Source: Mesorhizobium prunaredense
Lineage (GTDB): Bacteria; Pseudomonadota; Alphaproteobacteria; Rhizobiales; Rhizobiaceae
Direction of reading: 5' to 3'
Length of the DNA: 64,000 nt
NCBI RefSeq assembly: GCF_900156895.1
Contig: NZ_FTPD01000022.1
Span: 17,167-81,166, forward strand
Shown here: in pieces, positions 32,727 to 49,433 of the stretch
Position numbering within the stretch: position 1 is the stretch's first letter
Layout of the letters: each line of letters opens with the position of its first letter
Notes under the pieces: model-generated
Database searches by the model: none
What the model saw: the letters and a program-made list of their open reading frames with translations, nothing else
Told to the model about the DNA's origin: nothing
Program-made: the position numbers and the translations under genes

Positions 32727-32754
32727 CAATGTGCTGAGTGCATTTCTAACACCG

Positions 32755-32764
32755 TAAAACCAAT
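32755..32764. promoter_or_regulatory. weak copy of the GntR motif before the transporter
   Basis: TAAAACCAAT resembles the cluster motif with two bases (AG) missing. It lies 85 bases before the binding-protein gene in a 122-base gap, so a second promoter here is possible. Weak evidence on its own. Confidence 0.25.
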
Positions 32765-32848
32765 TCCGCAGTTGTCAGAGGCGCACGAGCGGCTCGGACC
32801 AGCGCCCGGAGGAGCATCGTGCACGGGCGAAATCTAGGGAGAAGCAAA

Positions 32849-33934
32849 ATGATGAACTCGAACATCCGATATGCGCGGCAGCTTGCAAGTTTCACCGCTC
32901 TTGTCGCAGTGACGCTGCCGCTTTCACCGGTGCTGGCCCAAGACGCGGCTTTGATCGACGCTGCAAAGAAAGAAGGTACAGTGTCGGTGTACACCTCCAC
33001 CGATGCTGAGCAGTCGCAGAAGCTCCAGGACGCATTTACAAAGAAGTATGGCATTGCAATTGCCTACAATGATGTGGGCACCAATGGCGCCTACAACCAA
33101 GTGATCTCGGAAGCCGCGGCTGGCCAGGTAACGGCGGATGTTGTCTGGAGCTCAGCGATGGACTTGCAGATGACGCTGGTCAAGGACGGCTATGCTCAGG
33201 AATACGCATCCCCCGAGGCTGCAAACATCCCGGCATGGGCAAACTACAAGAACATTCTCTTTGGCACCACGGTCGAGCCAATCGGCGTAATCTACAATAC
33301 CAAGGCACTGACTGAAGATCGCCTTCCCAAGACCTATGCCGACATGATCACCTTTTTGAAAAACAATAAGACCGAGTTGCAGGGCAAGGTCGCGACCTTC
33401 GATCCGGAGAAGAGCGGTTCGGGATTTTTGCATCATTCAAACGACGCCCGCCAGCGCAAGGATTTCTGGGATTTGGCGAAGGCCATGGGCGATGACGGTG
33501 CCAAAATCTACTCGAGCTCCGGCGGTATGAAGGAAACGGTGGTGTCCGGCGAGAACGTGATCGCCATCAATATCATCGGCTCTTATGCCCTTGATTGGGT
33601 GAAGGAGAGCCCGAACCTGGGCGTCCATTTCGCAAGCGACTACACACCAGCTTTTTCCCGCTTGGCACTGGTCGCCAACAATGCGCCGCATCCGAATGCT
33701 GCCAAGCTATTTGTCGATTTTCTGCTCTCGCAGGAAGGTCAGTCGGCGTTGGCGGAAGGCGGCTTGCCGGCAGTCCGCAAGGACGCCACTGGCGGCCTGA
33801 ATATTGATACGCTCAGTAAGCGCGTCGGCGGAGGCCTAAAGCCTATTGCCGTCGACGAAGGTCTGCTCGAGTACATGGAGCCGACAAAGCGCGTCCAGTT
33901 CCTGAACGACTGGAAGGCCGCGCTCGGACGTTAA
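32849..33934 (+). CDS. ABC transporter periplasmic binding protein (FbpA/AfuA-like family)
   Basis: The 361-residue product has a signal peptide cleaved after SPVLAQ and the fold of family 1 extracellular binding proteins labelled iron(III) or 2-aminoethylphosphonate. Seen are KEGTVSVYTSTDAEQSQKL, DVVWSSAMDLQM, PIGVIYNTKAL and HPNAAKLFVDFLLSQEGQ. The paired tyrosines used for iron by true FbpA are not evident, and the operon is catabolic, so an organic acid ligand is more likely than iron. GGGAGAAG precedes the ATG. The permease and ATPase genes follow directly. Confidence 0.85.
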   Translation: MMNSNIRYARQLASFTALVAVTLPLSPVLAQDAALIDAAKKEGTVSVYTSTDAEQSQKLQDAFTKKYGIAIAYNDVGTNGAYNQVISEAAAGQVTADVVWSSAMDLQMTLVKDGYAQEYASPEAANIPAWANYKNILFGTTVEPIGVIYNTKALTEDRLPKTYADMITFLKNNKTELQGKVATFDPEKSGSGFLHHSNDARQRKDFWDLAKAMGDDGAKIYSSSGGMKETVVSGENVIAINIIGSYALDWVKESPNLGVHFASDYTPAFSRLALVANNAPHPNAAKLFVDFLLSQEGQSALAEGGLPAVRKDATGGLNIDTLSKRVGGGLKPIAVDEGLLEYMEPTKRVQFLNDWKAALGR

Positions 33935-34012
33935 TGGGACTACGCATTGCAGCGCGACAATGTGCGCGCCGCAATGCTCCCTCGCCCTTAGCCGATAGCG
34001 AAAGCCACCGAT

Positions 34013-35770
34013 ATGAACGTTCAGACTCAAAATCCCGCCCTCGCCGCGGTCGGAGTGGCGCATGCGCACCACTACCCTGCGAAGATGCCGGTCGTAGGCA
34101 ACGCACGCCTTTATCGCATTGTCGTCATTGGTCTGTTGGCCTTGGCGGTGCTAACGCCTGTTGGGCTGATCATCTATCAGAGCTTTCTAACCGGCCCGTT
34201 TTTCAGCCCGCGGGCTGCTTTGGGGCTGGATGCATATGCCTATGTTTTCACGGACCGGAACTTCTACAAAGCCCTCGGCACAACGGCAGTGTTCGCGTTT
34301 GGTATGGTTGCAATCGCTGTTCCGCTAGGCGGTTTGCTGGCGTTCCTGATCACACGGACGGACATTCGATATAAGCGGCTGCTTGAGATCCTCGTCCTGG
34401 TGCCGATGTTCATCTCATCGATCGTGCTGGCCTTTGGCTATACTGTTTCGGTCGGGCCAACCGGCTTCCTATCGCTTGCAATGCGCGACCTCATCGGGAT
34501 CGTTCCGTGGAATATCTACAGCCTTACCGGCATGATCGTGATCGCTGGGCTGAGCCATGTCCCACACGTCCATCTGTATGTGTCTTCAGCGATGAGAAGT
34601 CTCCCCTCAGACTTGGAGGAGGCAGCTCGCACCAGCGGAGCAAACATTTGGCAAGTGTCACGTGACGTCACGCTTCCGATGGTTCTGCCATCGATCGTGT
34701 TTGCAGCCTCGCTGAATGTTCTGCTCGGCTTTGAAACCTTTGGTATCCCGCTCGTGCTCGGCGATCCAAATGGTATCATGGTACTCACGACCTATATCTA
34801 CAAACTCACCACGCTGTTTGGGACACCTACCTATCAATTGATGGCTGTGGTGGCCGTAGTGCTCCTGCTCATCACGCTGCCACTTGTCTGGATGCAGCGC
34901 CGTCTGCTGCGCAATGCAAGGCGCTATGCCGCACTCGGTGGCAAAGGCTCGCGCGTTGCCACGCTAAAACTGGGTCGCAATGGCCAACTCGTCGCGTTGG
35001 GCGTTATCGGCCTGTGGCTGTTCGTCTCCGTGGTTCTGCCGATTGGCGGGATTACCGTCAGAGCGTTCGTCGATGCGTGGGGAGAAGGCGTCAACCTGCT
35101 GGATCAGCTCACCCTGGCAAACTTCGCCCGTTTGACTGAAGTGCCAAGCCTCGTCCGCGGCATGATCAACACCGTTATCCTGTCCGTCGTCGGAGGCGCG
35201 GTAGCCGTTGGTATCTATCTGCTTGTCGGGCTTGCCGGCCACCGCAATCACGGCTTGTCCAACACGGTGCTCGACTACATTGTCCTCCTGCCCCGCGCCT
35301 TGCCTGGTCTGGTGATCGGCCTGGCCTTCTTCTGGGTCTTTCTGTTCGTGCCGTTCCTGACGCCGTTGCGGCCGACGTTGTTCAGCTTGTTCATCGCTTA
35401 CGTGGTGGTCGGTCTGTCCTATGGACTGCGCTTGCTGCAGGGCACGCTGATCCAGGTCGCGCCGGAGCTGGAGGAGTCGGCGCGCACGACCGGTGCAACG
35501 ATTGGGCGCACCTGGCGCGACATCGTCATTCCGATCGTCCGACCGGGTCTCGCAGGCGCCTGGGCGTTGATCATGATCATCTTTCTGCGCGAATATGCGA
35601 CCGGTGTGTATCTGATGGGCGCCGGCACCGAAGTGATCGGCTCGCTGATGGTATCGCTGCTGACCACCGGCGCGATGAACACCATCGCCGCCCTCGCCCT
35701 CATCAGCATTGTCTTGACCGGCGCCGGCCTCGCGCTCGCGCTTCGACTGGGAGCACGCATCCATGACTGA
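34013..35770 (+). CDS. ABC transporter permease, fused two-domain (FbpB-like)
   Basis: The 585-residue inner-membrane protein has two permease halves, about 12 membrane helices in all. Each half carries an EAA loop, seen as DLEEAARTSGANIWQVSRDVTLPMVLPS and ELEESARTTGATIGRTWRDIVIPIVRPG. This fused arrangement is usual for the iron(III)/phosphonate-type importers. The first helix starts near residue 35 after a cytoplasmic lead. It overlaps the ATPase start by 8 bases, so the two are translationally coupled. Confidence 0.9.
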   Translation: MNVQTQNPALAAVGVAHAHHYPAKMPVVGNARLYRIVVIGLLALAVLTPVGLIIYQSFLTGPFFSPRAALGLDAYAYVFTDRNFYKALGTTAVFAFGMVAIAVPLGGLLAFLITRTDIRYKRLLEILVLVPMFISSIVLAFGYTVSVGPTGFLSLAMRDLIGIVPWNIYSLTGMIVIAGLSHVPHVHLYVSSAMRSLPSDLEEAARTSGANIWQVSRDVTLPMVLPSIVFAASLNVLLGFETFGIPLVLGDPNGIMVLTTYIYKLTTLFGTPTYQLMAVVAVVLLLITLPLVWMQRRLLRNARRYAALGGKGSRVATLKLGRNGQLVALGVIGLWLFVSVVLPIGGITVRAFVDAWGEGVNLLDQLTLANFARLTEVPSLVRGMINTVILSVVGGAVAVGIYLLVGLAGHRNHGLSNTVLDYIVLLPRALPGLVIGLAFFWVFLFVPFLTPLRPTLFSLFIAYVVVGLSYGLRLLQGTLIQVAPELEESARTTGATIGRTWRDIVIPIVRPGLAGAWALIMIIFLREYATGVYLMGAGTEVIGSLMVSLLTTGAMNTIAALALISIVLTGAGLALALRLGARIHD

Positions 35771-36836
35771 ACTTGTCGTCAACAACGTCCAAAAATGGTT
35801 GGGTGGGCTGCAGATCTTGAAGGGCGCTTCCTTCACCGCCGAGCGCGGCTCGATCGTCGCGCTGCTGGGCGCGTCCGGCAGCGGCAAGACAACGCTGTTG
35901 CGTTGCGTTGCCGGGCTGGAACAGCCCGAAATCGGGCGCATCGTCATCGGCGACAAGACTGTGCTCGACGGGGAGCGCAAGATCGCGCTGCCTCCGGAGC
36001 AGCGAAACATTGGTCTGGTTTTCCAATCCTACGCCCTGTGGCCGCACCGGACCGTGCGAGAAAATGTGGGCTACGGCCTGAAACTGCGCGGCGTCGCGCC
36101 GGCCGAGATCGGCAGGCGCGTGCAGGCGATCCTCGAGCGGCTCGGCCTCGGTCACCTCGCCGACCGATACCCATCGCAATTGTCGGGAGGTCAGCAGCAG
36201 CGCGTCGCCATCTGCCGGGCCCTGGTCTATGAGCCTCGCGTGCTGCTTCTCGACGAGCCGCTTTCGAATCTCGACGCGAAACTGCGCGAGGAGGCACGCT
36301 ACTGGATCCGGAAGCTCATTCTCGACCTCGAGATTTGTGCGATCCTGGTCACCCACGATCAAAGCGAGGCACTTGCCGCGGCCGACAACATCCTGCTGCT
36401 GCAGGATGGACGCATCGTGCAGCAGGGGACGCCCCAGGAGATCTATTCAAATCCCAACAGCTTCTATTCCGCGGACTTCCTGGGTGCCAACAACATCATC
36501 AAGGGCCGCGTGCAGACCCTCGATGGCGCCAAGGCGACGATCGGCGGCGAAGGTTGGTCACTGCCAGGCGTCGTCCGTGATGCGGCAGGCGTCAGCGGAA
36601 ATAGTGATGCGACAGCCGTCATCAGGGTCGAGCAGATTTCAGTTTCGGACAAGGCCATGGAAGGGGGCTTCGAGATGGATCTCGATGATTCCATCTATCT
36701 CGGCGATCGTTGGGAATACAGGCTGCACCGCGGCGGGTTGATTGCCAAGGCAAATGGCGCACTGCAGATCGCCCCGGGCAAGGTTTGGGCCCGGATTCCT
36801 TCCGACGCTGTTTGGGTGTTTCCGGCGCAGAAGTGA
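35763..36836 (+). CDS. ABC transporter ATP-binding protein (FbpC/PotA-like)
   Basis: The 357-residue ATPase powers the importer above. It has Walker A (LLGASGSGKTTLLR), the signature LSGGQQQRVAICRAL, Walker B (VLLLDEPLSNLD) and the switch His (LVTHDQSEALA). A C-terminal TOBE-like domain starts near residue 240. Its start overlaps the permease stop. Confidence 0.92.
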   Translation: MTELVVNNVQKWLGGLQILKGASFTAERGSIVALLGASGSGKTTLLRCVAGLEQPEIGRIVIGDKTVLDGERKIALPPEQRNIGLVFQSYALWPHRTVRENVGYGLKLRGVAPAEIGRRVQAILERLGLGHLADRYPSQLSGGQQQRVAICRALVYEPRVLLLDEPLSNLDAKLREEARYWIRKLILDLEICAILVTHDQSEALAAADNILLLQDGRIVQQGTPQEIYSNPNSFYSADFLGANNIIKGRVQTLDGAKATIGGEGWSLPGVVRDAAGVSGNSDATAVIRVEQISVSDKAMEGGFEMDLDDSIYLGDRWEYRLHRGGLIAKANGALQIAPGKVWARIPSDAVWVFPAQK

Positions 36837-36901
36837 GCGCCGTCCGGCGGCTGCCCTCCTCCTGGCGGCCGCCGGTCCTCCCGACATCCTGGAGTTACGC
36901 A

Positions 36902-37594
36902 GTGACCGCACGCCCCCGCATCACCCTCGTTCATGCTACGCCGATCGCGATGGACCCAATTCGCGACGCCATGGCGGCGAATTGGCCTGAAGCCGAGCCG
37001 GTCAACATTCTCGAGGACAGTTTGTCACCCGACCGGGCGAAGGTCGACAGCATCAATGACGCACTGACAGATCGGATCGTTTCGCTTACCCGTTATGCGG
37101 AATCGATTGGCAGCGCGGCGGTGCTGTTTACCTGTTCGGCGTTTTCTTCGGCGATCGAACTGGCCGCGTCGCTTGCTTCCGTTCCGGTGCTCAAGCCGAA
37201 CGAAGCCATGTTCGAGGCCGCGATCCGGCAAGGTGGCAGAACCGCGATGCTATACACCTTTCCGCCGGCGCGCGCGGGGATGGAACATGAGTTTCGCGAG
37301 GAGGCGGATCGTATCAATCCATCGGCAACATTGACCAGTTTCCTGGTCGAAGGTGCGATCGATGCTGTAAGAGCCGGTGACGTCGCCACTCACAATCGTC
37401 TTGTCGCAGAGGCCGCCACAAGGATCGAGGGCTTCGATGCTATCACGCTCGCGCATTTCTCGACGGCGCGTGCAAAATCTGCGGTTGAGGCCAAGACAAC
37501 AACACCGGTTTTGACAAGTCCTGATGCGGCCGTTGCCAAACTGCGCTCCCTGCTTGGTGTCGGGGCCACCACTTCCCAGCAGGCCGGGAGGTAG
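36902..37594 (+). CDS. Asp/Glu racemase-superfamily enzyme with a single active-site Cys
   Basis: The 230-residue product has the Asp/Glu/hydantoin racemase fold. The first catalytic Cys is present (VLFTCSAFSSAIE, Cys78), and so is the glycine/proline pattern around PVLKPNEAMFEAAI. The second Cys of two-base racemases is missing: the matching stretch reads ITLAHFSTARAKS, with Phe186 or His185 at the place. A one-Cys member may be a decarboxylase, isomerase or lyase instead of a racemase. The GTG start has GGAG seven bases upstream. It lies in the catabolic operon between the transporter and the kinase. Confidence 0.75.
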   Translation: MTARPRITLVHATPIAMDPIRDAMAANWPEAEPVNILEDSLSPDRAKVDSINDALTDRIVSLTRYAESIGSAAVLFTCSAFSSAIELAASLASVPVLKPNEAMFEAAIRQGGRTAMLYTFPPARAGMEHEFREEADRINPSATLTSFLVEGAIDAVRAGDVATHNRLVAEAATRIEGFDAITLAHFSTARAKSAVEAKTTTPVLTSPDAAVAKLRSLLGVGATTSQQAGR

Positions 37595-37599
37595 TTCGG

Positions 37600-38871
37600 A
37601 TGCTGCTTGGTGTCATTGCAGACGACTTCACCGGTGCGAGCGATATCGCCAACACGATCGCCAAAGGCCTACCCGGGCAGGGCGGTTTGCGGACTGCGCA
37701 ATTTTTGGGCGTTCCGCGGAAGGAAACAACGAGCGACATTGAAGCCGGCGTGATCGCGCTCAAGAGCCGCTCGATCGCGGCTGCGGATGCCGTTGCCCAG
37801 TCACTTGAGGCGCTGCATTGGCTGCTCGCCCACGGATGTAGACAGGTTGTCTTCAAATATTGCTCGACCTTTGATTCGACGCCCACCGGCAATATTGGAC
37901 CAGTGGCCGAGGCACTGGCTGAGGCGCTCGATGCCCATGGCGTCATCGCTTGCCCGGCTTTTCCTGCTGCTGGTCGCACCGTCTACCAGGGCCATCTCTT
38001 CGTTCACGACCGGCTCCTCAACGAGTCCGGCTTGCAAAACCATCCCCTCAACCCGATGACCGACCCCGACATTCGGCGCTGGCTGACACGTCAGTCGCGC
38101 TATCCCGTCGGATTGGTGACTTGGTCGTCTGTCCGGGCTGGTCCGGCTGAGATTACTGCAAAACTTCGAAAAGCCCATGGGTCTGGCCAGCGCCTGGTGA
38201 TCGTAGATGCTCTTGGCGATGACGACCTTGTCGCGATCGGAACTGCCGCGGCGAGCGCGAAACTTATTACGGGGGGCTCCGGCGTGGCGATGGGTCTCCC
38301 GGCCAACTTCATCGCCGCCGGATTGGCTCGCGGCTCAACTTCGCTCGGCATCGGCGTCGACGGTCCTGAAGCGATCCTGGCTGGCAGCTGCTCAGGCGCG
38401 ACGCGTGGTCAGGTAGAACGGCACCAGCAAAAGCACCCCACCCTCGCGATCGATGTGGATTCCGTGATGCGGGGGGACACGACCGCCTCCGATCTCGTCA
38501 GTTTCGTTCTCGGCAACCACGGCAAGGCGCCACTGGTCTTTTCGTCCGGTTCGCCCGATGAGGTGAGCCGACTGCAAGGCCGGTATGGACGCGACGCGAT
38601 TGCAGAAACGCTTGATGCGCTTTTCGCCGATACGGCGCGGAAGCTTGTGTCCGCTGGCGTCCGGAGGCTCGTGGTGGCCGGCGGCGAAACCTCCGGAGCC
38701 GTCGTTACCGCGCTCGACCTCGGTGCGCTGACCATCGGTCCTGAAATTGATCCGGGCGTGCCCGTTGTCATCTCAACCGGCCAAGCACCGGTTGCAATGG
38801 CGCTCAAGTCAGGCAATTTTGGTGCGCCCGACTTCTTCGTAAAAGCTTTGGATAGGATGGCGGGTAGATGA
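37600..38871 (+). CDS. otnK: DUF1537 four-carbon acid sugar kinase, OtnK-like
   Basis: The family phosphorylates C4 acid sugars; OtnK makes 3-oxo-tetronate 4-phosphate. The 423-residue product has the N-terminal GVIADDFTGASDIANT, the substrate stretch VFKYCSTFDSTPTGNIGP and ACPAFPAAGRTVYQGHLFV. In the C-terminal ATP half VVAGGETSGAVVTAL is seen. This is the OtnK layout, and the class II aldolase that follows with an overlapping stop/start fits OtnC. I infer conversion of a 3-oxo-tetronate to DHAP via these two enzymes. Specificity within DUF1537 is hard to call by eye. Confidence 0.8.
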   Translation: MLLGVIADDFTGASDIANTIAKGLPGQGGLRTAQFLGVPRKETTSDIEAGVIALKSRSIAAADAVAQSLEALHWLLAHGCRQVVFKYCSTFDSTPTGNIGPVAEALAEALDAHGVIACPAFPAAGRTVYQGHLFVHDRLLNESGLQNHPLNPMTDPDIRRWLTRQSRYPVGLVTWSSVRAGPAEITAKLRKAHGSGQRLVIVDALGDDDLVAIGTAAASAKLITGGSGVAMGLPANFIAAGLARGSTSLGIGVDGPEAILAGSCSGATRGQVERHQQKHPTLAIDVDSVMRGDTTASDLVSFVLGNHGKAPLVFSSGSPDEVSRLQGRYGRDAIAETLDALFADTARKLVSAGVRRLVVAGGETSGAVVTALDLGALTIGPEIDPGVPVVISTGQAPVAMALKSGNFGAPDFFVKALDRMAGR

Positions 38872-39506
38872 CCACTGAAGCGAACATTCGCGAGAACATT
38901 GCTCGCCTTTCAAAATCCCTGTTCGACCGAGGCTTCTCGGCGGGTTCGGCCGGGAACATCAGCGCCGCCGTTGAAGATGGATTGCTGATAACACCGACAA
39001 ATTCGTGCCTGGGTTTTCTGGACCCTGGCCGTATCTCCAAGCTGGACAAAGAGGGCCGCCACATCGCCGGTGACAAGCCATCCAAGGAAGTGTTTTTGCA
39101 TCGCGCCTTTTACGAAACGCGGCCTGGCACGGGCGCAGTCGTACACCTGCACTCCACATTCGCCACTGCCCTTTCCTGTCTGAGCGACCTTGATCCAAAC
39201 GACTGTGTGCCGCCGCTGACGCCTTACGTTGTCATGCGCGTCGGCAAGGTCGGCCTCATTCGATACCTGCGCCCTGGCGACGAAGGCCTCGGGCAATTGA
39301 TCCGAGACTTGGGTGGTGCGTATTCGGCTGTTCTGCTCGCCAACCATGGCCCGGTCGTCGCAGGAAAGGATCTCACGTCTGCCGTTTACGCGGCGGAGGA
39401 ACTTGAAGAGACAGCCAAATTGCTCGTCCTGACACGCGGCCTGCCGACGACTTTGCTCACGCCCGATCAAGTCACCGAACTCCTCACTGTTTTTGCAAAT
39501 TATTGA
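38868..39506 (+). CDS. otnC: class II aldolase/decarboxylase, OtnC-like
   Basis: OtnC decarboxylates 3-oxo-tetronate 4-phosphate to dihydroxyacetone phosphate. The 212-residue product is a class II (zinc) aldolase of the fuculose type. Its metal ligands are seen in VVHLHSTFATAL and LLANHGPVVAG, and the general acid region in GDKPSKEVFLHRAFY. The substrate phosphate loop is GFSAGSAGNIS. The start codon overlaps the kinase stop (ATGA), so the two proteins are made together. Confidence 0.82.
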   Translation: MTTEANIRENIARLSKSLFDRGFSAGSAGNISAAVEDGLLITPTNSCLGFLDPGRISKLDKEGRHIAGDKPSKEVFLHRAFYETRPGTGAVVHLHSTFATALSCLSDLDPNDCVPPLTPYVVMRVGKVGLIRYLRPGDEGLGQLIRDLGGAYSAVLLANHGPVVAGKDLTSAVYAAEELEETAKLLVLTRGLPTTLLTPDQVTELLTVFANY

Positions 39507-39513
39507 GTTGGAC

Positions 39514-39987
39514 ATGAAAACTGCCGATCTCGTCGACGCCCACGGAGAAGCCGTCAAATTTTGCAATCTGCCATTCATGAAGCTAGGCCGCCGCAAGGCG
39601 TTCTTCGGGCCAGTCGCTACCGTGAAATGCTTCGAAGACAATGCGTTGCTAAAGGCTGAGCTGGAAAAGCCGGGAAATGGCCGCGTAATGGTGGTTGATG
39701 GCGGCGGCTCGACTCGCGTCGCCCTAATTGGCGACCAGATTGGATTGCTTCTGGAAAAGAACAGCTGGGCCGGCATCGTCATCAACGGTGCGGTGCGCGA
39801 CAGCGCTGAGCTCGATGACATGGACGTCGCCGTTTTTTGCCTCGCGGTCACGCCGAAGAAATCCTCCAAGGATGCCGCCGGCAAGACAGGTGTGACGATC
39901 CATTTCGGCGGTATCGAATTCAAACCGAACATGTTCGCCTATGCTGATCGCGATGGGCTTCTCGTATCGGAGACAAGCTTTGCTTGA
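39514..39987 (+). CDS. RraA-like aldolase/decarboxylase
   Basis: The 157-residue product is a full-length RraA-type protein: MKTADLVDAHGEAVKFCNLP, the central VMVVDGGGSTRVALIGDQIG, and the active-site GIVINGAVRDSAELDDMDVAVF. Members either inhibit RNase E or act as divalent-metal aldolases and decarboxylases on 4-hydroxy-2-oxo acids and oxaloacetate. The operon favours an enzyme. The ATG at 39514 is used; an in-frame TTG at 39493 overlaps the aldolase gene. Confidence 0.75.
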   Translation: MKTADLVDAHGEAVKFCNLPFMKLGRRKAFFGPVATVKCFEDNALLKAELEKPGNGRVMVVDGGGSTRVALIGDQIGLLLEKNSWAGIVINGAVRDSAELDDMDVAVFCLAVTPKKSSKDAAGKTGVTIHFGGIEFKPNMFAYADRDGLLVSETSFA

Positions 39988-40044
39988 AGGCGCACACCAA
40001 GCGTCTGGCAGGCGACGCGACCATATGTCGGCGGAGCAACGCAA

Positions 40045-41442
40045 ATGATTACCTCTATCAATCCGGCCACAGGCGCCGAGGTTGTGCACTTTGAGCCTCA
40101 CAACGACGCTGTGATCGAATCCGCTCTTCAAGCTGCGGCTGCGGCGCAAAGATCATGGCGGCAGGAATCCGTTTCAGAACGCGTGAAACTCCTCACCGCT
40201 ATGGCGAGAGTGCTGCGGTCCGGCAAGGCCCGCTACGCTGCCTTGGTCACCGAAGAAATGGGCAAGCCAATCGTTGAATCTGAAGGTGAGATCGAAAAAT
40301 GTGCATGGAATTGCGATTTCTATGCCGACCATGCACCGAACTACCTTGCCGATGAACCGATCGCCTCAAATGCGAGTGAGAGTTCAGTCGTCTTCGATCC
40401 CTTGGGTGTCGTGCTCGCCATCATGCCCTGGAACTATCCATTTTGGCAGTTCTTTCGGTTCGCCGCGCCTGCGTTTGCGGCCGGCAACGGGGCAATCTTG
40501 AAACACGCCAACAACGTGCCCCGATGCGCCATGGCCATTGCCGAGATCATGGAACAGGCCGGTTGCCCACGCGGCCTGTTCGCCACTCTACTCATCGAAC
40601 CTTCAAAGGTCGCTTCGATCATCGCAGACGAAAGGATTGCCGCTGTCACGCTGACCGGCTCGACAGAGGTCGGAGCCATCGTTGCCGCGCAAGCCGGCAA
40701 GGCTTTGAAAAAACAGGTCCTTGAACTTGGGGGATCCGATCCCTTTATCGTCCTTGCGGACGCTGATCTGAAGGAGGCCGCGGCAATCGCTGTCAAGGCG
40801 CGGTACATCAATGTCGGACAGTCATGCGTCAACGCCAAACGTTTCATAATCGAGGAAAGCATCGCGGACGAGTTCGTCGGTCTTTTCTGCGCCGAGGTCG
40901 CCAACTTAAAGATTGGCGATCCGAACGATCGCGACACAAATATCGGCCCAATGGCTCGCGCGAATTTGCGCGATGGGCTTCACCGACAGGTTGAAATTAC
41001 CGTTGCTGCGGGAGCAACGCTGAGGCTCGGGGGCAAGCCATTCGAGGGCCAAGGATATTACTATCCGCCAACAGTTCTCGACCATGTCACACGGTCGATG
41101 ACGGCATTTCGCGAAGAGACATTCGGGCCTGTAGCAGCGATAATACGTGCGAAAGACGCGGACGAAGCCATCGAGCTTGCCAATGACACTGAATTCGGAC
41201 TCGGCGCCGCGCTTTGGACGCGCGACCTTGAATCAGCCCGAAAACTGGCGCGCCGTATCGATGCCGGTGCAGTTTTCATCAATGGCATGGTCGCGTCAGA
41301 CCCGCGATATCCATTCGGGGGCATCAAACGTTCGGGCTATGGTCGCGAACTTGGGGTCTACGGAATACGTGAGTTCGTCAACATCAAGACGGTCTGGGTC
41401 GGTCCTGCAAAAGTTCCGCCGACCACGTCGCCTCGGAAATAG
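40045..41442 (+). CDS. NAD(P)-dependent aldehyde dehydrogenase (succinate-semialdehyde type)
   Basis: The 465-residue enzyme oxidises an aldehyde to the acid. It is of the short succinate-semialdehyde dehydrogenase (Sad/GabD) type. The general base Glu227 lies in LELGGSDPFIV and the nucleophile Cys261 in NVGQSCVNAKRF. The cofactor region MPWNYPFWQFFRFAAPA and the C-terminal FGGIKRSGYGRELG are intact. The role in the operon is unknown; it could handle glycolaldehyde, a semialdehyde or a tartronate-type product. Confidence 0.9.
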   Translation: MITSINPATGAEVVHFEPHNDAVIESALQAAAAAQRSWRQESVSERVKLLTAMARVLRSGKARYAALVTEEMGKPIVESEGEIEKCAWNCDFYADHAPNYLADEPIASNASESSVVFDPLGVVLAIMPWNYPFWQFFRFAAPAFAAGNGAILKHANNVPRCAMAIAEIMEQAGCPRGLFATLLIEPSKVASIIADERIAAVTLTGSTEVGAIVAAQAGKALKKQVLELGGSDPFIVLADADLKEAAAIAVKARYINVGQSCVNAKRFIIEESIADEFVGLFCAEVANLKIGDPNDRDTNIGPMARANLRDGLHRQVEITVAAGATLRLGGKPFEGQGYYYPPTVLDHVTRSMTAFREETFGPVAAIIRAKDADEAIELANDTEFGLGAALWTRDLESARKLARRIDAGAVFINGMVASDPRYPFGGIKRSGYGRELGVYGIREFVNIKTVWVGPAKVPPTTSPRK

Positions 41443-41865: not shown

Positions 41866-41961
41866 AGTAGGGCCGACAGGAAATGGCGTCGCCGGTTCGC
41901 CGGTCCATCAACGGGCAAGGACTTCAGCGGCCCGCGCCACGTTTGTTGCAGCCCTTACCCT

Positions 41962-42292
41962 TTATGGCCGGACATAGCTCGTCTTCACATTTGTGAAGAA
42001 CTCCCGCGCATAGGAGCCCTGTTCGCGCTGCCCGAGGCTCGACCTCTTCGTGCCTCCGAAAGGAACGTGGTAGTCGACACCGGCGGTGGGCGTATTGACC
42101 ATGACCATCCCGGCCTGCGCGTGACGCCTGAAATGGCTGGCATGCTTCAAGCTGGTGGTGCAAATGCCCGACGCAAGGCCAAACGGCGTGTCGTTGGCGA
42201 CGTGAAGTGCTCCCCTCATAGTCGCGCACGCGGATGACAGATGCGACCGGGCCGAACACCTCCTCGCGGTTGGCGGGCGCCATATTTGTAGT
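41962..42292 (-). pseudogene. truncated and frameshifted aldehyde dehydrogenase (C-terminal part)
   Basis: On the minus strand, one frame gives TTNMAPANREEVFGPVASVIRVRDYEG. A second frame then gives ALHVANDTPFGLASGICTTSLKHA and PFGGTKRSSLGQREQGSYAREFFTN before the stop at 41962. Joining them needs loss of one C from the run at 42212-42215. The catalytic Cys half is absent. The end resembles 2-oxoglutarate-semialdehyde dehydrogenases. Homology begins exactly at a direct repeat (42291-42333), so the gene was probably cut when the A/T-rich block was inserted. Confidence 0.75.
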
Positions 42293-42333
42293 TCGCCGGA
42301 AACCGACCGGGCGCATTTGGATGCTGAGCCGCT
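42291..42333. repeat. diverged direct repeat, right copy
   Basis: This is the counterpart of 26529-26570. It sits between the broken aldehyde dehydrogenase and the sugar ABC operon, at the point where composition changes from A/T-richer to host-like. Confidence 0.5.
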
Positions 42334-42339
42334 GATGCA

Positions 42340-43095
42340 TTAGCCGCCAACCATGAGCTTGACGACTTCGTCATGGTTGGTTTCCGAGATCCTGCGCTCG
42401 CCGGCCTGGATACCGCGGCGCAGCACGACGATGCGGTCGGAAACGGCGAAAATATCCTGCAGATTGTGCGAGATGAAGATCACCCCCCGGCCTTGCGCCT
42501 TGAGCTGGTGGATGAGCGAGATGACCTTGCGCTGCTCCGGCACGCCGAGGGCCGCGGTCGGTTCGTCCATGATCAGGATCTGCGCGTCCCAATAGACGGC
42601 TCGGCCGATGGCAACGGCCTGCCGTTGACCGCCGGAGAAATTGCTGACCGGGGCGTCGAGCCGGCTGACATGGAAATCCAGCCGCCCCATGGTCTGCTTG
42701 GCGGCGACGGCCATGGCCTTGCGATCGAGCACCGGCAAGAAACCGAAGGCCTTGCGCATGGGTTCACGGCCGAGGAAGATATTGGCGCCGATGGACAGAT
42801 TGTCGGCGAGAGCGAGATCCTGGTAAATGGTCTCGATGCCTTTTTCGCGCGCCTCCTGCGGCGTCGCGAAGGTGACCGGCTGCCCCCTCAGCAGAATTTC
42901 ACCGCCGGTCGGCTGAAAGACGCCCGATATCGCCTTGATCAGCGTCGTCTTGCCGGCGCCGTTGTCGCCGGCCAGCGCCACCACTTCGCCCGGCCGCACG
43001 GCCATGGAGAAATCGTTCAGTGCCTGCACCGCACCGAAATGCTTGGAAAGGTGTCGGACCTCGAGAAGCGGGGTGGTTTGTTCGGAACTATTCAT
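42340..43095 (-). CDS. sugar ABC transporter ATP-binding protein (FrcA-like, single domain)
   Basis: The 251-residue ATPase is of the ribose/fructose class but has only one ATPase domain, like FrcA of rhizobia, not the double RbsA form. Walker A is ALAGDNGAGKTTLIKA, the signature FSGGQRQAVAIGRAV and Walker B ILIMDEPTAAL. The start at 43095 overlaps the permease end by 8 bases. It is the last gene of the leftward binding protein-permease-ATPase operon. Confidence 0.92.
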   Translation of the reverse strand: MNSSEQTTPLLEVRHLSKHFGAVQALNDFSMAVRPGEVVALAGDNGAGKTTLIKAISGVFQPTGGEILLRGQPVTFATPQEAREKGIETIYQDLALADNLSIGANIFLGREPMRKAFGFLPVLDRKAMAVAAKQTMGRLDFHVSRLDAPVSNFSGGQRQAVAIGRAVYWDAQILIMDEPTAALGVPEQRKVISLIHQLKAQGRGVIFISHNLQDIFAVSDRIVVLRRGIQAGERRISETNHDEVVKLMVGG

Positions 43096-44140
43096 CCTGG
43101 CGAGCTCCACTGAACCGGCGCTGCGCCTGGTCGATAAGGACGGAGATAATGATGACGAGGCCGACGGCGATGAACTGCCAGAACGGCTCGACATTGACGA
43201 AAACCAGCCCGTATTGAATGACGGCGATGACCAAGGCGCCGGCGACCGTCCCGAAGATGGTGCCGGAGCCACCGAACAGGCTGGCGCCGCCGATCACCAC
43301 GGCTGCAACGCTGTCGAGCAGCAAGGGTTCGCCGGCCTGGGCGGCGCCCGCGGTGAAGCGCGCTGCATAGAGCGCGCCCCCGAGGCCGGCGCACATCGCC
43401 GAAAGCACGTAGAGGCGCAGGATGTGGCCTCTGATGTCGATGCCGGCGCGGCGCGCCGCCTGCACATTGGCGCCGATGGCGTAGTTGTGCTGGCCGAACC
43501 GGGTCTGGCTCAGGATGTAGTGCATCACCACGACAAAGACGGCGGCAATGATGACGAGATAAGGCACCCCGTAGAACCTGCCGTTGCCAAGCAGCGCGAA
43601 CCAGGAATTCTGGACCGGCACCGTCGTGCCGCCGGCCAGCAGGAATGCAGCGCCGCGCGCCACGCCAAACATGCCAAGCGTGCCGATGAAGGGTGGAATT
43701 CTGAGGCGCGAGATCAGCAAGCCATTGATGACGCCAGGCACGCCGGCGACGATCACGGCCGCCAGAATGCCCAACATCATGGCCAGAGGCACCGGCATGG
43801 CGACGCCAGCCATATTCGTGGCGTGGGCGGCGACGACGGCCGCGAGACCCATGATGAAGCCCAGCGAGAGGTCGATGCCTCCCGAAATAATAACGAAGGT
43901 CTGCCCGGTCGCCAGCAGCAACGGCGCCACGGCAAATATCGCAATGGACTGCACGTTGAACGGGTTGAGCACGAAGGTCGCGCCGAAGGAGAGCCTCGAC
44001 CAGACCTCGAAACAGATGATCAGGCCCGCAAGGAACAGCCAGGCGCGTCCTTCGGCGATGCGTGCGAGCCAACTCCTGGCCGGGTCACCGTGATCCGCCT
44101 GAGGAGCGACATGCGTTTCGATTGGCGATGTTGAAGTCAT
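43088..44140 (-). CDS. sugar ABC transporter permease (RbsC/FrcC-like)
   Basis: The 350-residue membrane protein has about ten hydrophobic helices and the class motif TFVIISGGIDLSLGFIMGLAAV. The conserved GLLISRLRIPPFIGTLGMFGVARG is also present, as in ribose/fructose permeases. The ATG at 44140 is used; a TTG seven codons earlier is possible. It follows the binding-protein gene, with a stable hairpin in the gap. Confidence 0.92.
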   Translation of the reverse strand: MTSTSPIETHVAPQADHGDPARSWLARIAEGRAWLFLAGLIICFEVWSRLSFGATFVLNPFNVQSIAIFAVAPLLLATGQTFVIISGGIDLSLGFIMGLAAVVAAHATNMAGVAMPVPLAMMLGILAAVIVAGVPGVINGLLISRLRIPPFIGTLGMFGVARGAAFLLAGGTTVPVQNSWFALLGNGRFYGVPYLVIIAAVFVVVMHYILSQTRFGQHNYAIGANVQAARRAGIDIRGHILRLYVLSAMCAGLGGALYAARFTAGAAQAGEPLLLDSVAAVVIGGASLFGGSGTIFGTVAGALVIAVIQYGLVFVNVEPFWQFIAVGLVIIISVLIDQAQRRFSGARQDE

Positions 44141-44186
44141 GAATGGTTCCGATCCGGTCAAACAGGGTCAAAGAGACCCGGCGCAG

Positions 44187-44223: not shown

Positions 44224-45204
44224 TTATTCGGAATAGAGATATTTCGAGATGTTCGGGTCGGCGATGTTGGCCTTGTCCATGATCGTAAAGCCGGTACCGA
44301 TCGCAACCGGGATCGACTGGCCGGTCAGATGGGCATAGGCCGACACGACACCGAAATAGCCAATTTCCGCGGGATGCTGGGCAATCGCTACGTCGACAAG
44401 GCCAGTGTTGATGTTGTCGACAATGCTGGTCGGCGCATCGAACGCCACGACCTTGACGGTGCCGGTCTGCCCGGCCTGCTGGACGCCATTCGCCGCGCCA
44501 AGCGCCGAGAACAGGTTGGCGCCGAACACCCCGACGAGATCGGGATTGCGCGCGAACACAGCCTGCAGTTGCGAGGCGGCCTTGTTGGCGTCGTTGTCGT
44601 TGAACTGGGTTTCGAGAACGGTGACGCCGGGATGGTTGGCCGCCATCTCCTTTTTAAAACCCTCTTCACGCTGGTCGGTGGTCGAAATGCCTGGCTTGAC
44701 GTTCGAAACGTAGACCTTGCCCTTGTCGCCTATGGCCTTGGCCAATGCCCGCGCGGCGATCTCGCCGCCCAGAATGTTGTCGGAGGCAATATAGGACAGT
44801 GGAAAATCCGCCTCGCCGGCGCCGGTCTGGTAGACGCCGCTGCCGATGAAGGTGTCGACGGTGATCACCGGAATGCCGGCGTCATGGGCCTTGCGCAGGG
44901 GTTCGACCAATTGAACCTTGTCGGTCGGCGCGATCAGGATGGCATCCGGCTTCTTGGCGATGACCGCGTCAAGCACGGGGACCTGCGTTACCGGATTGAA
45001 ATCCGGGGCGCCCTGGAAAACCAGGGTCACGCCAAGGGCATCGGCTGCCGCCTGGGCTCCCTTGCGCATGGTGATGTAAAAGCCGTCGGTGGTAAGACCC
45101 GGAATGAGCGCAATGGTGAATTTTTTGTCCTGCGCCAATGCGGGCTTGACCAGCGCCACTGCGCAGATGGCGAGAGCCGCCAGGGCGGCAACAATCTTCT
45201 TCAT
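44224..45204 (-). CDS. sugar ABC transporter periplasmic binding protein (RbsB-like)
   Basis: The 326-residue protein has a signal peptide (MKKIVAALAALAICAVALVK, cut after ALAQ) and a periplasmic binding protein type I fold. Seen are FTIALIPGLTTDGFYITMRKGAQ, PDAILIAPTDKVQLVEPL and GIPVITVDTFIGSG. The ligand should be a monosaccharide or similar polyol; the contact residues cannot be read by eye. GGAGG precedes the ATG. Its promoter region shares a 28-bp element with the aldolase gene at 46874. Confidence 0.9.
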   Translation of the reverse strand: MKKIVAALAALAICAVALVKPALAQDKKFTIALIPGLTTDGFYITMRKGAQAAADALGVTLVFQGAPDFNPVTQVPVLDAVIAKKPDAILIAPTDKVQLVEPLRKAHDAGIPVITVDTFIGSGVYQTGAGEADFPLSYIASDNILGGEIAARALAKAIGDKGKVYVSNVKPGISTTDQREEGFKKEMAANHPGVTVLETQFNDNDANKAASQLQAVFARNPDLVGVFGANLFSALGAANGVQQAGQTGTVKVVAFDAPTSIVDNINTGLVDVAIAQHPAEIGYFGVVSAYAHLTGQSIPVAIGTGFTIMDKANIADPNISKYLYSE

Positions 45205-45683: not shown

Positions 45684-46589
45684 TTATCGGGGCAAGAGAG
45701 CCTCGAGGATGGCCTGGGCCGTCTTCGTGTCCGTCACCAGAGCATTGATAAGCCTGGCGCGGACGGCACCAATGATTGCCATCGCCTTCTCCGGCGAGGC
45801 GGCGACCCCGATCACCAGGGGGACGGCTCGAAGCTGGGCCGGCGACATTGCGATCATCCGGCCCTCCCCCTCCCACGGGATGAGCGTGCCTTCGGCATCG
45901 AAGTAGTGGCGGATGACGTCACCCGCCGCATGAAACAGGGCCTGTTCGCTCAGCGTGGCCGCGCTCGCTTCGGGCGGATTGGTGGCATGGGGCAGGCCGA
46001 TGCCGACGATCGCAACGTCGGTCCGGTCCCAAAGCGCGACGCTGTCGCGGATGGCCGCATCGCCGAGGAAGACCTCACGCAATTCCGAGGACGGCAGATA
46101 GGGCGCATGGATGAAATGCGGCGTCCCGCCCAACTCTTCGGCGGCCAGCCGCACAAACTCGTTGATTTGAAAATGCGCCGCCTGCTGCTGCATGCCGCCG
46201 GTGGCAGCGACGGTAAGAACGCCGGGAATGCGCGGCAGGCCTGCCTGGATCACCTCGCGAATGGCTCGCCCCCAGCCGATGGCGACGACCGAGCCGGCCG
46301 TCAGTCCGACTTGCTTGAGCAAGGCGCCGAGCGGCGCAGCGAGCGCCGTCAGCGCACCGGCTGCCGGCGTTTCGATGACCGCCGCGTCACGCAGCCCGAG
46401 TGCCTCGACCAGTTGCGTGGTGATGCCTTCGGGGGTTGCAAGATCGAGAACCTCGATCCGCACGATGCCCTCCGCCCTCGCCCGCTGCAGGAGGCGCGAT
46501 ATGGTCGCGGTGGAAACGCCAAGCCGCCGCGCGATATCGACCTGCGACATGTCCGCCTCATAGTGCAGTTTGGCGACCGTATGCAGCAT
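45684..46589 (-). CDS. SorC/DeoR-type sugar-binding transcriptional regulator
   Basis: The 301-residue product has an N-terminal helix-turn-helix (LHYEADMSQVDIARRLGVSTATISRLLQRARAEGIV) and a SorC sugar-phosphate-binding domain (about 55-300). The latter contains VVAIGWGRAIREVIQ and VAIVGIGLP. SorC regulators respond to a phosphorylated intermediate of the pathway they control. It lies between the transporter operon and the aldolase-kinase genes. A conserved element precedes both, so it very likely regulates both. No better start is seen upstream of 46589. Confidence 0.88.
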   Translation of the reverse strand: MLHTVAKLHYEADMSQVDIARRLGVSTATISRLLQRARAEGIVRIEVLDLATPEGITTQLVEALGLRDAAVIETPAAGALTALAAPLGALLKQVGLTAGSVVAIGWGRAIREVIQAGLPRIPGVLTVAATGGMQQQAAHFQINEFVRLAAEELGGTPHFIHAPYLPSSELREVFLGDAAIRDSVALWDRTDVAIVGIGLPHATNPPEASAATLSEQALFHAAGDVIRHYFDAEGTLIPWEGEGRMIAMSPAQLRAVPLVIGVAASPEKAMAIIGAVRARLINALVTDTKTAQAILEALLPR

Positions 46590-46873: not shown

Positions 46874-47779
46874 ATGACAAAGATGACGACCGCAGAGTTG
46901 CGCGGCTACCAGCAGATATGCGGCAAGGACGGGGCCATGATGGCCATCGCCTGTGACCAGCGCGGCGGCATGCGAAGCTTGCTTGCGTCGGACCCCGCCG
47001 AACAGGCCAAGATCACCAACGACATGCTGGGCGACACCAAGTCGGACATCACGCGATACCTCGCCAGCCAGGCATCCTGCGTACTGCTCGACCCGCTCTG
47101 CGCGGTGCCGCGGGTTGTCGATGAAGGGGTGCTGAGCCGCGATACGGCTCTGCTCATCGGCCTCGACGCTTCGGGCTTCGACGTCTCGCCCGCCGGCTAC
47201 CGCCTGTCGCGCCTCGCTCCCGGCATCGGCGCGCGCCGCGTCCGCGAGCTCGGCGGCACCGGCGGCAAGATCATGGTCTATCTCAGGGCCGACAGGCCTG
47301 AGGCGAACGAGCATAATGTCGCCATTCTGCGCCAATGCATCGCCGATTTCGCGCAAGAGGACCTCCTGCTCGTCGTCGAGTTCCTGACCTATCAGCTCGA
47401 AGCGGAAAGCCTTGAAGAGTATGCGGCCAAGATCCCCTGGCTCGTCGAAGAGGGCACCCGGATTTCGCTGGAATGCGGGGCCAAGGTGCTCAAGCTTCCT
47501 TATCCCGGAACGCCGGAAGCCTGCGCCAGGATCAGCAGCATGGCTGGCGAGGTGCCATGGGCGGTCCTCTCCGCCGGCGTCAACCACGCAACCTTCCTGG
47601 GCCAGGTCGAGATCGCGATGCGGAACGGCGCGTCAGGCGTCATCGCCGGCCGGTCGCTGTGGAAGGACTGCATCTCGCTCGACCGTGACATTCAGCGGGA
47701 AAGGCTCAGGACTATCGCAGTATCGAGATTGCGCGAGCTTCAGGCGGTGATCGGAAACTACCGGCAGAAAGCCGCTTAG
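46874..47779 (+). CDS. class I aldolase of the LacD/YihT (DeoC/LacD) family
   Basis: The 301-residue product resembles tagatose-1,6-bisphosphate aldolase (LacD) and sulfofructose-1-phosphate aldolase (YihT). Seen are MAIACDQRGGMRSLL near the N-terminus, the Schiff-base Lys207 in AKVLKLPYPG, and the C-terminal WAVLSAGVNHATF and GASGVIAGRSLWKD phosphate loop. It should cleave a phosphorylated ketose into DHAP and an aldehyde. The gene lies downstream of the SorC-linked element and upstream of the ROK fusion kinase, which probably makes its substrate. Whether the sugar is tagatose-, fructose- or sulfo-type is not resolved. Confidence 0.82.
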   Translation: MTKMTTAELRGYQQICGKDGAMMAIACDQRGGMRSLLASDPAEQAKITNDMLGDTKSDITRYLASQASCVLLDPLCAVPRVVDEGVLSRDTALLIGLDASGFDVSPAGYRLSRLAPGIGARRVRELGGTGGKIMVYLRADRPEANEHNVAILRQCIADFAQEDLLLVVEFLTYQLEAESLEEYAAKIPWLVEEGTRISLECGAKVLKLPYPGTPEACARISSMAGEVPWAVLSAGVNHATFLGQVEIAMRNGASGVIAGRSLWKDCISLDRDIQRERLRTIAVSRLRELQAVIGNYRQKAA

Positions 47780-47933: not shown

Positions 47934-49433
47934 ATGCCTCTTAGTTCGATGGCCATAGGAATCGATATCGGCGGCACCAATCTGCGCGCCGCCCGTGTTT
48001 CCGGCACGGGCGAAATCCTCGACCGCATTTCCGAGAAAAGCGCGCCGGACCCCGAGCTCGTGCTCTCCCGGATCGCCGAAATGGTGCGCCGGCTCGATTC
48101 CCCCGAAGTTGCGGCCATTGGCATCGGCGTCCCCGGCCGCGTCGATGCGCGGCTTGGCGCGGTCTTGTCCGGGGGCTATGTCAACCTCGCCTCGGTCTCC
48201 CTGGCGCAACGACTGGAAAGCCTGGCGGGCAAGCCCGTGGTGATCGACAATGACTGCAACATGGCACTGGTCGCCGAAATGGCTCTCGGTGCCGCCAGAG
48301 GCCATGAAAGCATCGTCATGTTCACGATCGGGACCGGCATTGGCGGTGCCGTGGTCCAGGACCGGCGAATCGTCCGCGGCAAGGGGACGGCGGGGCAGCT
48401 CGGCCACATCACCGTCGACATATCAGGCGAAGCGTGCGTCTGCGGCCGGCGCGGCTGCGTTGAAACCACCAGCTCAGGCACGGCGCTTGGCCGTCACATC
48501 GCGCGGGCAGGCCTCGGTCCGGACGTTTCGGTCGATCAGCTTTTTGCCCGGGATGCGGGCGGCGATCGCTTGGCGCGCGGTATACTGGAAGCCTGGGCCG
48601 GGCCGCTGCGTGCGGCAATCGATACGACCGTGGCCATGTTCGACCCCGACCTGGTGCTGCTCGGCGGCGGACTTGGCCTGGCGGCCCATCGGGCGCTTGC
48701 CAGGGCTCCTGCCCTGGCTCCCTGGTACCAATGCCCGGTGGAAGCGGCGCAACTGGGCGACGACGCCGGGGTCATCGGCGCCGGTCTGCAAGCGCTCGCC
48801 GCACAAGCAGAAGTTGCGCAAGCAGAAGTTGCACAAGTCTCGCCAGTGTCCTTGCCGACCGCCCGGCTCGATCGCACCAGGCGCGCCGTGCCCAGCCGGC
48901 GCGCCGTGCTCGTCAACGGCATCCCCGCCAGCGGCAAAAGCACGGTCTCGCGCGGCATCGCCGAGCGCATGGGTTGGCCATTGCTGGCACTCGATACGAT
49001 CAAGAACCCGTTCCTCGAAGTGCTTGGCGGCGGCGATCGCGAATTCAACCGCATACTCGGCCGCGCCAGTTACCAGGCCATCTGGTCAGTCGTCGGCGAG
49101 GCCCCGGCGGGCACCATATTTGTCGTAGACGCCTGGTTCGGCTTCCAGCCGCGCCAGGTGCTCGAGGATCACCTGCGCAGCGCCGGCGTCGAGCAGACCG
49201 CCGAGATCTGGTGCCATGCGCCCGGCGAGGTTCTGGCCGAGCGCTATCGCGCACGGCTCGACCAGCGTCCGGCCGGCCATCCCGGCGCGACCTACATCCC
49301 CGAACTGATCGAACTGGCCAAGCGCGCCGAGCCGCTGCGGCGCGGACCGCTGTTTGACGTCGACACGACCAGACCGATCGCCTTCGACGCCATCGCGCGA
49401 TGGCTGCAGGCGACGATTGCGGCTGACAGATAG
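47934..49433 (+). CDS. fusion of a ROK sugar kinase and a P-loop kinase
   Basis: The 499-residue product joins two different kinase folds. Residues 6-288 are a complete ROK kinase: GIDIGGTNLRAAR (8-20), the catalytic Asp107 in DNDCNMALVAE, FTIGTGIGGAV, and the zinc site His158 with Cys168, Cys170 and Cys175. The usual Glu of the GExGH motif is Gln155. A short linker with a duplicated AQAEV follows. Residues about 320-499 form a P-loop kinase with Walker A GIPASGKST (329-337) and VVDAWFGFQ, similar to small-molecule kinases of the AAA_33/zeta type. Neighbouring aldolase and sugar importer suggest consecutive phosphorylation of one sugar; this is inference. Confidence 0.85.
   Translation: MPLSSMAIGIDIGGTNLRAARVSGTGEILDRISEKSAPDPELVLSRIAEMVRRLDSPEVAAIGIGVPGRVDARLGAVLSGGYVNLASVSLAQRLESLAGKPVVIDNDCNMALVAEMALGAARGHESIVMFTIGTGIGGAVVQDRRIVRGKGTAGQLGHITVDISGEACVCGRRGCVETTSSGTALGRHIARAGLGPDVSVDQLFARDAGGDRLARGILEAWAGPLRAAIDTTVAMFDPDLVLLGGGLGLAAHRALARAPALAPWYQCPVEAAQLGDDAGVIGAGLQALAAQAEVAQAEVAQVSPVSLPTARLDRTRRAVPSRRAVLVNGIPASGKSTVSRGIAERMGWPLLALDTIKNPFLEVLGGGDREFNRILGRASYQAIWSVVGEAPAGTIFVVDAWFGFQPRQVLEDHLRSAGVEQTAEIWCHAPGEVLAERYRARLDQRPAGHPGATYIPELIELAKRAEPLRRGPLFDVDTTRPIAFDAIARWLQATIAADR

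What the first reader, a model, noticed from the sequence alone, without database searches (positions are those of the whole stretch)
47934..49433. ROK kinase fused to a P-loop kinase
A full zinc-type ROK kinase is joined by a short duplicated linker to an unrelated P-loop kinase with intact Walker A. With a LacD/YihT-type aldolase upstream, the fusion could perform two phosphorylations on one sugar, for example to a bisphosphate. I know of no described enzyme with this build.
Basis: partly seen in the sequence, partly recalled or inferred. Interest (0 to 1): 0.7.

Follow-up and report, generated by a model that had tools for sequence, protein, structure and literature searches.

The report
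Two sugar kinases fused in one
A soil bacterium carries one protein made of two unrelated sugar kinases, in a small gene set that probably imports a rare plant sugar, adds a phosphate to each end and cuts it in two; the general pathway was guessed in print in 2017, but the fused enzyme was not noted in anything found here.

Summary
ORF 47934-49433 (+, 499 aa) is a zinc-type ROK kinase (residues 8-284) joined by a variable, disordered linker to an intact P-loop kinase (about 322-495). It is not a local oddity: the same fusion occurs in Mesorhizobium, Rhizobium, Agrobacterium and Rhodobacterales, nearly always with a LacD-type aldolase, a SorC regulator and a three-gene sugar ABC importer. Among 150 related genomes the P-loop kinase and the aldolase were found in exactly the same 36. 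Four genomes keep the two kinases as adjacent or overlapping separate genes. Best reading: ROK adds the terminal phosphate, the P-loop domain the second (C1), and the aldolase cleaves the ketose bisphosphate. The importer's binding protein is 77% identical to Avi_5339 (PDB 5dkv), reported to bind mannoheptulose. New here: the fusion, its spread and split relatives, the PTS swap, and a conserved Glu-to-Gln change in the ROK sugar site. No activity has been shown.

The parts
47934..49433 (+). ROK kinase - P-loop kinase fusion gene, 499 aa
47955..48785 (+). ROK kinase domain (residues 8-284), zinc motif and N106-D107 intact; Q155 where the compared ROK proteins have Glu
   Evidence: PF00480 E 1.5e-51
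48786..48896 (+). variable linker with a 15-nt unit repeated twice (about 48804-48831)
   Evidence: by eye; pLDDT under 50 at residues 303-317; length varies between strains
48897..49418 (+). P-loop kinase domain (about residues 322-495); Walker A 329-336, D354, D399, R437/R441/R445, GHPG 448-451
   Evidence: PF13671 above cut-off; relative of PDB 2rhm, E 9.3e-16
46874..47779 (+). LacD/DeoC-type class I aldolase, 301 aa
   Evidence: PF01791 E 1.4e-15; found in the same 36 of 150 genomes as the P-loop kinase
45684..46589 (-). SorC/DeoR-type regulator with sugar-binding domain, divergent from the aldolase
   Evidence: PF04198 E 2.4e-44
44224..45204 (-). sugar-binding protein of the ABC importer, 77% identical to PDB 5dkv (A. 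vitis Avi_5339)
43088..44161 (-). ABC importer permease
   Evidence: PF02653 E 5.6e-37
42340..43095 (-). ABC importer ATPase (start inferred at the ATG near 43095; the listed ORF runs to 43272)
   Evidence: PF00005 E 4e-32

Best explanation
The protein is a bifunctional ketose double-kinase. The ABC importer brings in a ketose with the D-tagatose-like C3-C5 configuration, most likely D-mannoheptulose. The ROK domain phosphorylates the terminal hydroxyl (C7 of a heptulose, C6 of a hexulose). The P-loop domain then phosphorylates C1, as phosphoribulokinase does on ribulose 5-phosphate, giving the 1,7- (or 1,6-) bisphosphate. The LacD-type aldolase cleaves this to glycerone phosphate plus erythrose 4-phosphate (or glyceraldehyde 3-phosphate). 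Shown here: the fusion, its conservation, the linked gene set, split and PTS-linked relatives. Inferred: order of steps, positions phosphorylated, and the sugar. The fusion most likely just keeps both steps together on a flexible tether; channelling is not shown.
For: 1) Gene set: 78 of 79 genome loci have the aldolase, 77 the SorC regulator, 76 all three ABC genes. 2) In 150 relatives the aldolase and the P-loop kinase were found in the identical 36 genomes. 3) An importer, two kinases and an aldolase make a complete route without an isomerase if the aldolase substrate is a bisphosphate; LacD relatives act on bisphosphates or, in YihT, on a sugar with an anion at each end (recalled). Residues recalled as catalytic in LacD (D27, K125, E163, K205, R278) are kept in the alignments. 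4) PTS swap: all 13 PTS-linked P-loop kinase loci examined have a ketose-bisphosphate aldolase (9 class II, 4 LacD-type) and no match to the window's ROK domain in the stretch fetched; two (L139, L155) keep SorC, LacD-type aldolase and P-loop kinase with no Pfk match. In L139 none of seven further ORFs scanned is a kinase. A PTS delivers a sugar phosphate, i.e. it does the ROK step. 5) The binding protein's closest solved relative 5dkv is Avi_5339, reported to bind mannoheptulose, from which the same pathway was proposed. 6) Gln at 155 in 105 of 105 readable rows, against Glu in five PDB ROK rows and in the four other ROK matches of this genome, fits an unusual sugar. 7) The genome has a separate tagatose kinase homologue with a GatZ homologue beside it, so tagatose probably has another route.
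Against: No activity data. Eleven of the 13 PTS-linked operons also carry a Pfk-like gene, so the P-loop kinase is not the only candidate second kinase there. The mannoheptulose binding is an unpublished observation quoted in one paper; I recall, but could not read here, that 5dkv was solved with D-tagatose (its title is cut before the ligand). Eleven of 79 loci have a tagatose kinase and GatZ homologue near the gene set, so the importer may also serve tagatose. The genome has one PF00365 (Pfk) protein, so a general Pfk cannot be ruled out as a second kinase. The further ORFs of L155 were read by eye only.
Confidence: 0.62

Rival explanations
1. Same double-kinase mechanism, but the physiological sugar is D-tagatose: tagatose 6-phosphate, tagatose 1,6-bisphosphate, then glycerone phosphate and glyceraldehyde 3-phosphate.
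For: LacD/DeoC-type aldolase; 11 of 79 loci have a tagatose kinase and a GatZ homologue near by; 5dkv recalled as a D-tagatose complex.
Against: Those loci, and this genome on another contig, already have a PfkB-type tagatose kinase plus GatZ pair, which would make the fusion redundant; mannoheptulose binding is reported for Avi_5339.
Confidence: 0.2
2. The ROK domain (or PTS) makes a ketose 1-phosphate, the aldolase cleaves it to glycerone phosphate and a free aldose, and the P-loop domain phosphorylates that aldose (erythrose or glyceraldehyde).
For: Fits the same gene set and the PTS operons; would allow a separate role for the Pfk-like gene beside the P-loop kinase in 11 of 13 PTS operons.
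Against: Known ROK sugar kinases act on the terminal hydroxyl (recalled); LacD-type enzymes expect a second anion (recalled).
Confidence: 0.12
3. The P-loop domain acts on an unrelated substrate or only regulates the ROK domain.
For: AAA_33 covers many activities (recalled); NCBIfam gives no match above cut-off and the closest PDB entry is a 'putative kinase' (2rhm).
Against: Identical distribution with the aldolase in 150 genomes; largely invariant active-site positions in fused, split and PTS-linked forms; free-standing forms beside bisphosphate aldolases of two unrelated classes (class II confirmed by PF01116 for L135).
Confidence: 0.06

Closest known systems
Predicted mannoheptulose locus of Rhodobacteriaceae bin08 (PMC5507952; section 15 and passages seen)
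   Same: ABC importer with an Avi_5339-like binding protein, COG3684 aldolase, ROK kinase and a second kinase; [quoted passage not shown]
   Different: Described as two kinases (COG1940 and COG0529); no fusion mentioned in what I saw (its supplementary tables were not available, so the bin08 gene structure is not known to me); prediction only
ROK glucokinases / N-acetylmannosamine kinases (PDB 3vov, 2qm1, 3vgk, 2yhw)
   Same: Fold, catalytic Asp, zinc motif
   Different: Gln at 155 instead of Glu; carries a second kinase; below the cut-off of every NCBIfam model that it matched
PDB 2rhm putative kinase and AAA_33 kinases
   Same: Sequence relatives of the C-terminal domain
   Different: 2rhm is called only a putative kinase
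Phosphoribulokinase (recalled)
   Same: P-loop kinase that adds the C1 phosphate to a ketose phosphate
   Different: Not among the profile or PDB sequence matches of this domain
LacD tagatose-bisphosphate aldolase and YihT sulfofructose-phosphate aldolase
   Same: Neighbour enzyme's family; active-site residues aligned with LacD
   Different: Below the LacD and PRK12858 cut-offs

Membership tests
ROK kinase (PF00480) | Profile score above gathering cut-off | tested here: met
   176.1 bits against 22.9
ROK kinase (PF00480) | DxGGT motif, catalytic Asp in the ND pair, zinc motif | tested here: met
   Invariant in 34 aligned fusions and in the readable rows (104-105) of 106
ROK kinase (PF00480) | ATP-dependent sugar phosphorylation | not testable with these tools
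   needs an assay
Glucokinase, ManNAc kinase, allose kinase (NCBIfam) | Curated cut-off | tested here: not met
   136.1 against 260.35 for TIGR00744; allose kinase 135.3 against 253; PRK05082 134.6 against 283
AAA_33 P-loop kinase (PF13671) | Profile score above gathering cut-off, Walker A | tested here: met
   31.6 against 27; Walker A Lys335 in 106 of 106 rows
Chloramphenicol phosphotransferase-like (PF07931) | Profile score above gathering cut-off | tested here: not met
   21.9 against 22; many homologues do carry the label
Adenylylsulfate kinase (COG0529, label used in PMC5507952) | Profile match | tested here: inconclusive
   No APS kinase Pfam or NCBIfam entry among matches at E 0.1; COG models not available
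LacD tagatose-bisphosphate aldolase (neighbour) | NCBIfam cut-off | tested here: not met
   TIGR01232 67.1 against 432.2; PRK12858 158.3 against 184; PF01791 is met
Mannoheptulose pathway of PMC5507952 | Avi_5339-like binding protein with ROK, second kinase and COG3684 aldolase in one locus | tested here: met
   (COG3684 inferred from the LacD-type profiles)
Mannoheptulose pathway of PMC5507952 | Growth on, or enzyme activity with, mannoheptulose | not testable with these tools
   no data

The most novel reading that the evidence does not exclude
The C-terminal domain founds a new family of ketose-phosphate 1-kinases, unrelated to PfkA and PfkB, and the fusion is one polypeptide that turns a free plant heptulose (D-mannoheptulose) into its 1,7-bisphosphate, so that rhizobia degrade a seven-carbon plant sugar with three enzyme activities encoded by two genes.
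Probability: 0.38. Interest if true: 0.62.

Novelty: new variant of a known kind. Interest (0 to 1): 0.46.

Why it matters
If right, it gives an experimental handle on a sugar-degradation pathway that is so far only a prediction, assigns a function to a free-standing P-loop kinase family also found in PTS operons, and replaces the labels 'glucokinase' or 'ROK family protein' that this protein bears in many records. It would also show how soil and plant bacteria use a heptulose that dominates the sugars of some plants, such as avocado at harvest (PMC12473306, start of abstract in a search listing).

Tried and rejected
Chance fusion or assembly join: rejected. G009 and G088 looked split but are single open frames. 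Inactive C-terminal domain: not supported. Glucokinase label: fails cut-offs. Fold search of the fusion model listed only ROK-fold proteins in its 50 rows, so it says nothing about the P-loop domain; the model does not fix the domain orientation (pTM 0.65). The library title of 5dkv is cut before its ligand. Literature: brought up only PMC5507952 on this pathway and, in the listings seen, nothing on a ROK/P-loop kinase fusion; the library holds open-licence papers only. PMC12193009 (passages seen) has none of the heptulose terms asked for. One origin or several for the fusion: unresolved, because the split genes fall next to the fused Mesorhizobium group (all four in the P-loop tree, three of four in the ROK tree), which needs either two fusions or a later fission. 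The presence/absence match is partly shared inheritance and not 36 independent events; I take it that both calls drew the same 150 genomes (94 negatives of each are not listed).

Full report
What is there. The ORF at 47934-49433 (+) encodes 499 residues. Residues 8-284 are a ROK kinase (PF00480, E 1.5e-51) and 325-445 match AAA_33 (PF13671, E 2.4e-7, above cut-off). The closest solved relatives by sequence are ROK glucokinases (3vov, 2qm1) for the first domain and 2rhm, a 'putative kinase' (E 9.3e-16), for the second. An AlphaFold2 model from 34 fusions has mean pLDDT 88.7, pTM 0.65, and a low-confidence linker at 303-317.

It is widespread and maintained. The 120 homologues listed, of 2,339 found among 7,994 scored, each cover at least 98% of the query; those that bear a name are nearly all Mesorhizobium. 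A genome scan found 145 relatives and kept the best 80 (79 loci), from Mesorhizobium, Rhizobium, Agrobacterium, Kaistiaceae and Rhodobacterales among others; 26 plasmid records also matched, 24 of them over at least 80% of the query. Of 108 loci with a P-loop domain match, the script called 102 fused, 4 split and 2 P-loop only; the 102 include repeats of the window's own locus and the partial loci L046, L071 and L084, and L071's frame breaks inside the P-loop domain. In eight Mesorhizobium-group sequences (28 pairs) median dN/dS is 0.17 for ROK and 0.15 for the P-loop domain, against 0.42 for the linker (20 pairs, dS near saturation). In a 34-row alignment the DxGGT, ND and zinc-motif residues of ROK and the Walker A lysine, D354, D399 and the three arginines of the P-loop domain are invariant. 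In a wider count of 106 rows, repeats included, 20 of 22 P-loop positions do not vary (S336 and Q405 do); with 13 PTS-linked rows added, 17 of 22 do not. One relative, G040, has an in-frame TAA within its match.

Split forms. L081 (Kaistia), L104, L105 and L108 have the two kinases as separate neighbouring genes: stop and start overlap in L104 and L105, and the second gene starts 4 bases (L081) or 9 bases (L108) after the first ends. In the P-loop tree the four form one group beside Mesorhizobium (94/89; joint branch 96/91); in the ROK tree three do and L105 lies apart. The fusion therefore arose more than once or was later undone; the data do not decide.

The gene set. Of the 79 loci, 78 have the LacD-type aldolase, 77 the SorC regulator, 76 all three ABC genes (identity limits 45%, 45% and 55%). 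Misses: aldolase L084; ABC L023, L071, L084; SorC L079, L084. L023 and L084 are cut by a contig end and L071 is a 6.9-kb contig; L079 lacks a SorC match on a 17-kb locus. In 150 related genomes the aldolase (E 1e-20) and the P-loop domain (E 1e-15) were found in the same 36. Across the class the P-loop domain is rare: 2 of 385 genomes, this one included, at E 1e-15.

The sugar. The binding protein matches 5dkv over about 300 residues (E 3.3e-162; 77% identity). That entry is Avi_5339 of A. vitis, and the A. vitis loci L055, L060 and L061 carry a protein 98-99% identical to it beside their own fusion. PMC5507952 (section 15 read; [quoted passage not shown] Whether the two kinases are fused there is not said in what I saw. 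Mannoheptulose shares the C3-C5 configuration of D-tagatose (established chemistry), which suits a tagatose-type aldolase. This genome also has a tagatose kinase homologue (406 bits against a cut-off of 420) with a GatZ homologue beside it on another contig, and 11 of 79 loci have such a pair near the gene set. So tagatose probably has its own route, though the importer may carry both sugars.

Natural swap. Thirteen PTS-linked P-loop kinase loci were examined: two from plasmid-collection records (L111 Klebsiella, L112 Sodalis), seven of the 11 hits (the other four are Alphaproteobacteria, G000 among them; of these L141 was fetched and carries the full fused gene set) and the four of the 11 hits not seen before. 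All 13 have PTS genes and a ketose-bisphosphate aldolase, and none has a match to the window's ROK domain in the 16 to 21 kb fetched. Nine have a class II aldolase plus Pfk (class II confirmed by PF01116 for L135, E 7.4e-89; the others by likeness), two a LacD-type aldolase plus Pfk (L112, L142), and two (L139, L155) SorC plus LacD-type aldolase with no Pfk match. In L139 none of seven further ORFs matched a kinase family in Pfam; in L155 the further ORFs were only read by eye. A PTS supplies a sugar phosphate, so the P-loop enzyme staying while ROK goes is what one expects if ROK does the first and the P-loop enzyme a later phosphorylation. The Pfk-like gene in 11 of 13 is the main difficulty.

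Sugar-site clue. Residue 155 is Gln in 105 of 105 readable rows, split forms included; the five aligned PDB ROK rows (two of them the same human enzyme) and the four other ROK matches of this genome have Glu. That this Glu contacts the sugar is recalled, not tested.

Verdict. The mechanism is probable but unproved, and its outline is in print as a hypothesis. The scope of 'not in print' is the ten searches named under Tried and rejected.

Noticed in passing
window 31632-41442 (+): Upstream block with an isopropylmalate-type dehydrogenase, an ABC importer, a DUF1537-type kinase (SBD_N/NBD_C) overlapping a class II aldolase, and an aldehyde dehydrogenase: looks like a four-carbon acid-sugar pathway (pathway recalled).
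   Followed up: partly
window 41924-42340 (-): ORF beside the ABC ATPase gene, part of which reads by eye like a piece of an aldehyde dehydrogenase; no Pfam match at E 1e-5, possibly a gene remnant.
   Followed up: no
L135-L138, L140, L156-L158, L111: Recurrent operon Pfk - PTS IIB - IIC - class II aldolase - about 90-aa hypothetical - IIA - P-loop kinase; sugar unknown.
   Followed up: partly
L055 2078-2857, L053, L067: Short-chain dehydrogenase (family scanned in L055 only) next to the ABC ATPase gene, a candidate for oxidising a sugar alcohol to the ketose.
   Followed up: no
L113 and L114: Gfo/Idh/MocA oxidoreductase and sugar phosphate isomerase/epimerase genes near the gene set on plasmids of Rhizobium sp. 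SL42 and Aureimonas sp. AU20.
   Followed up: no
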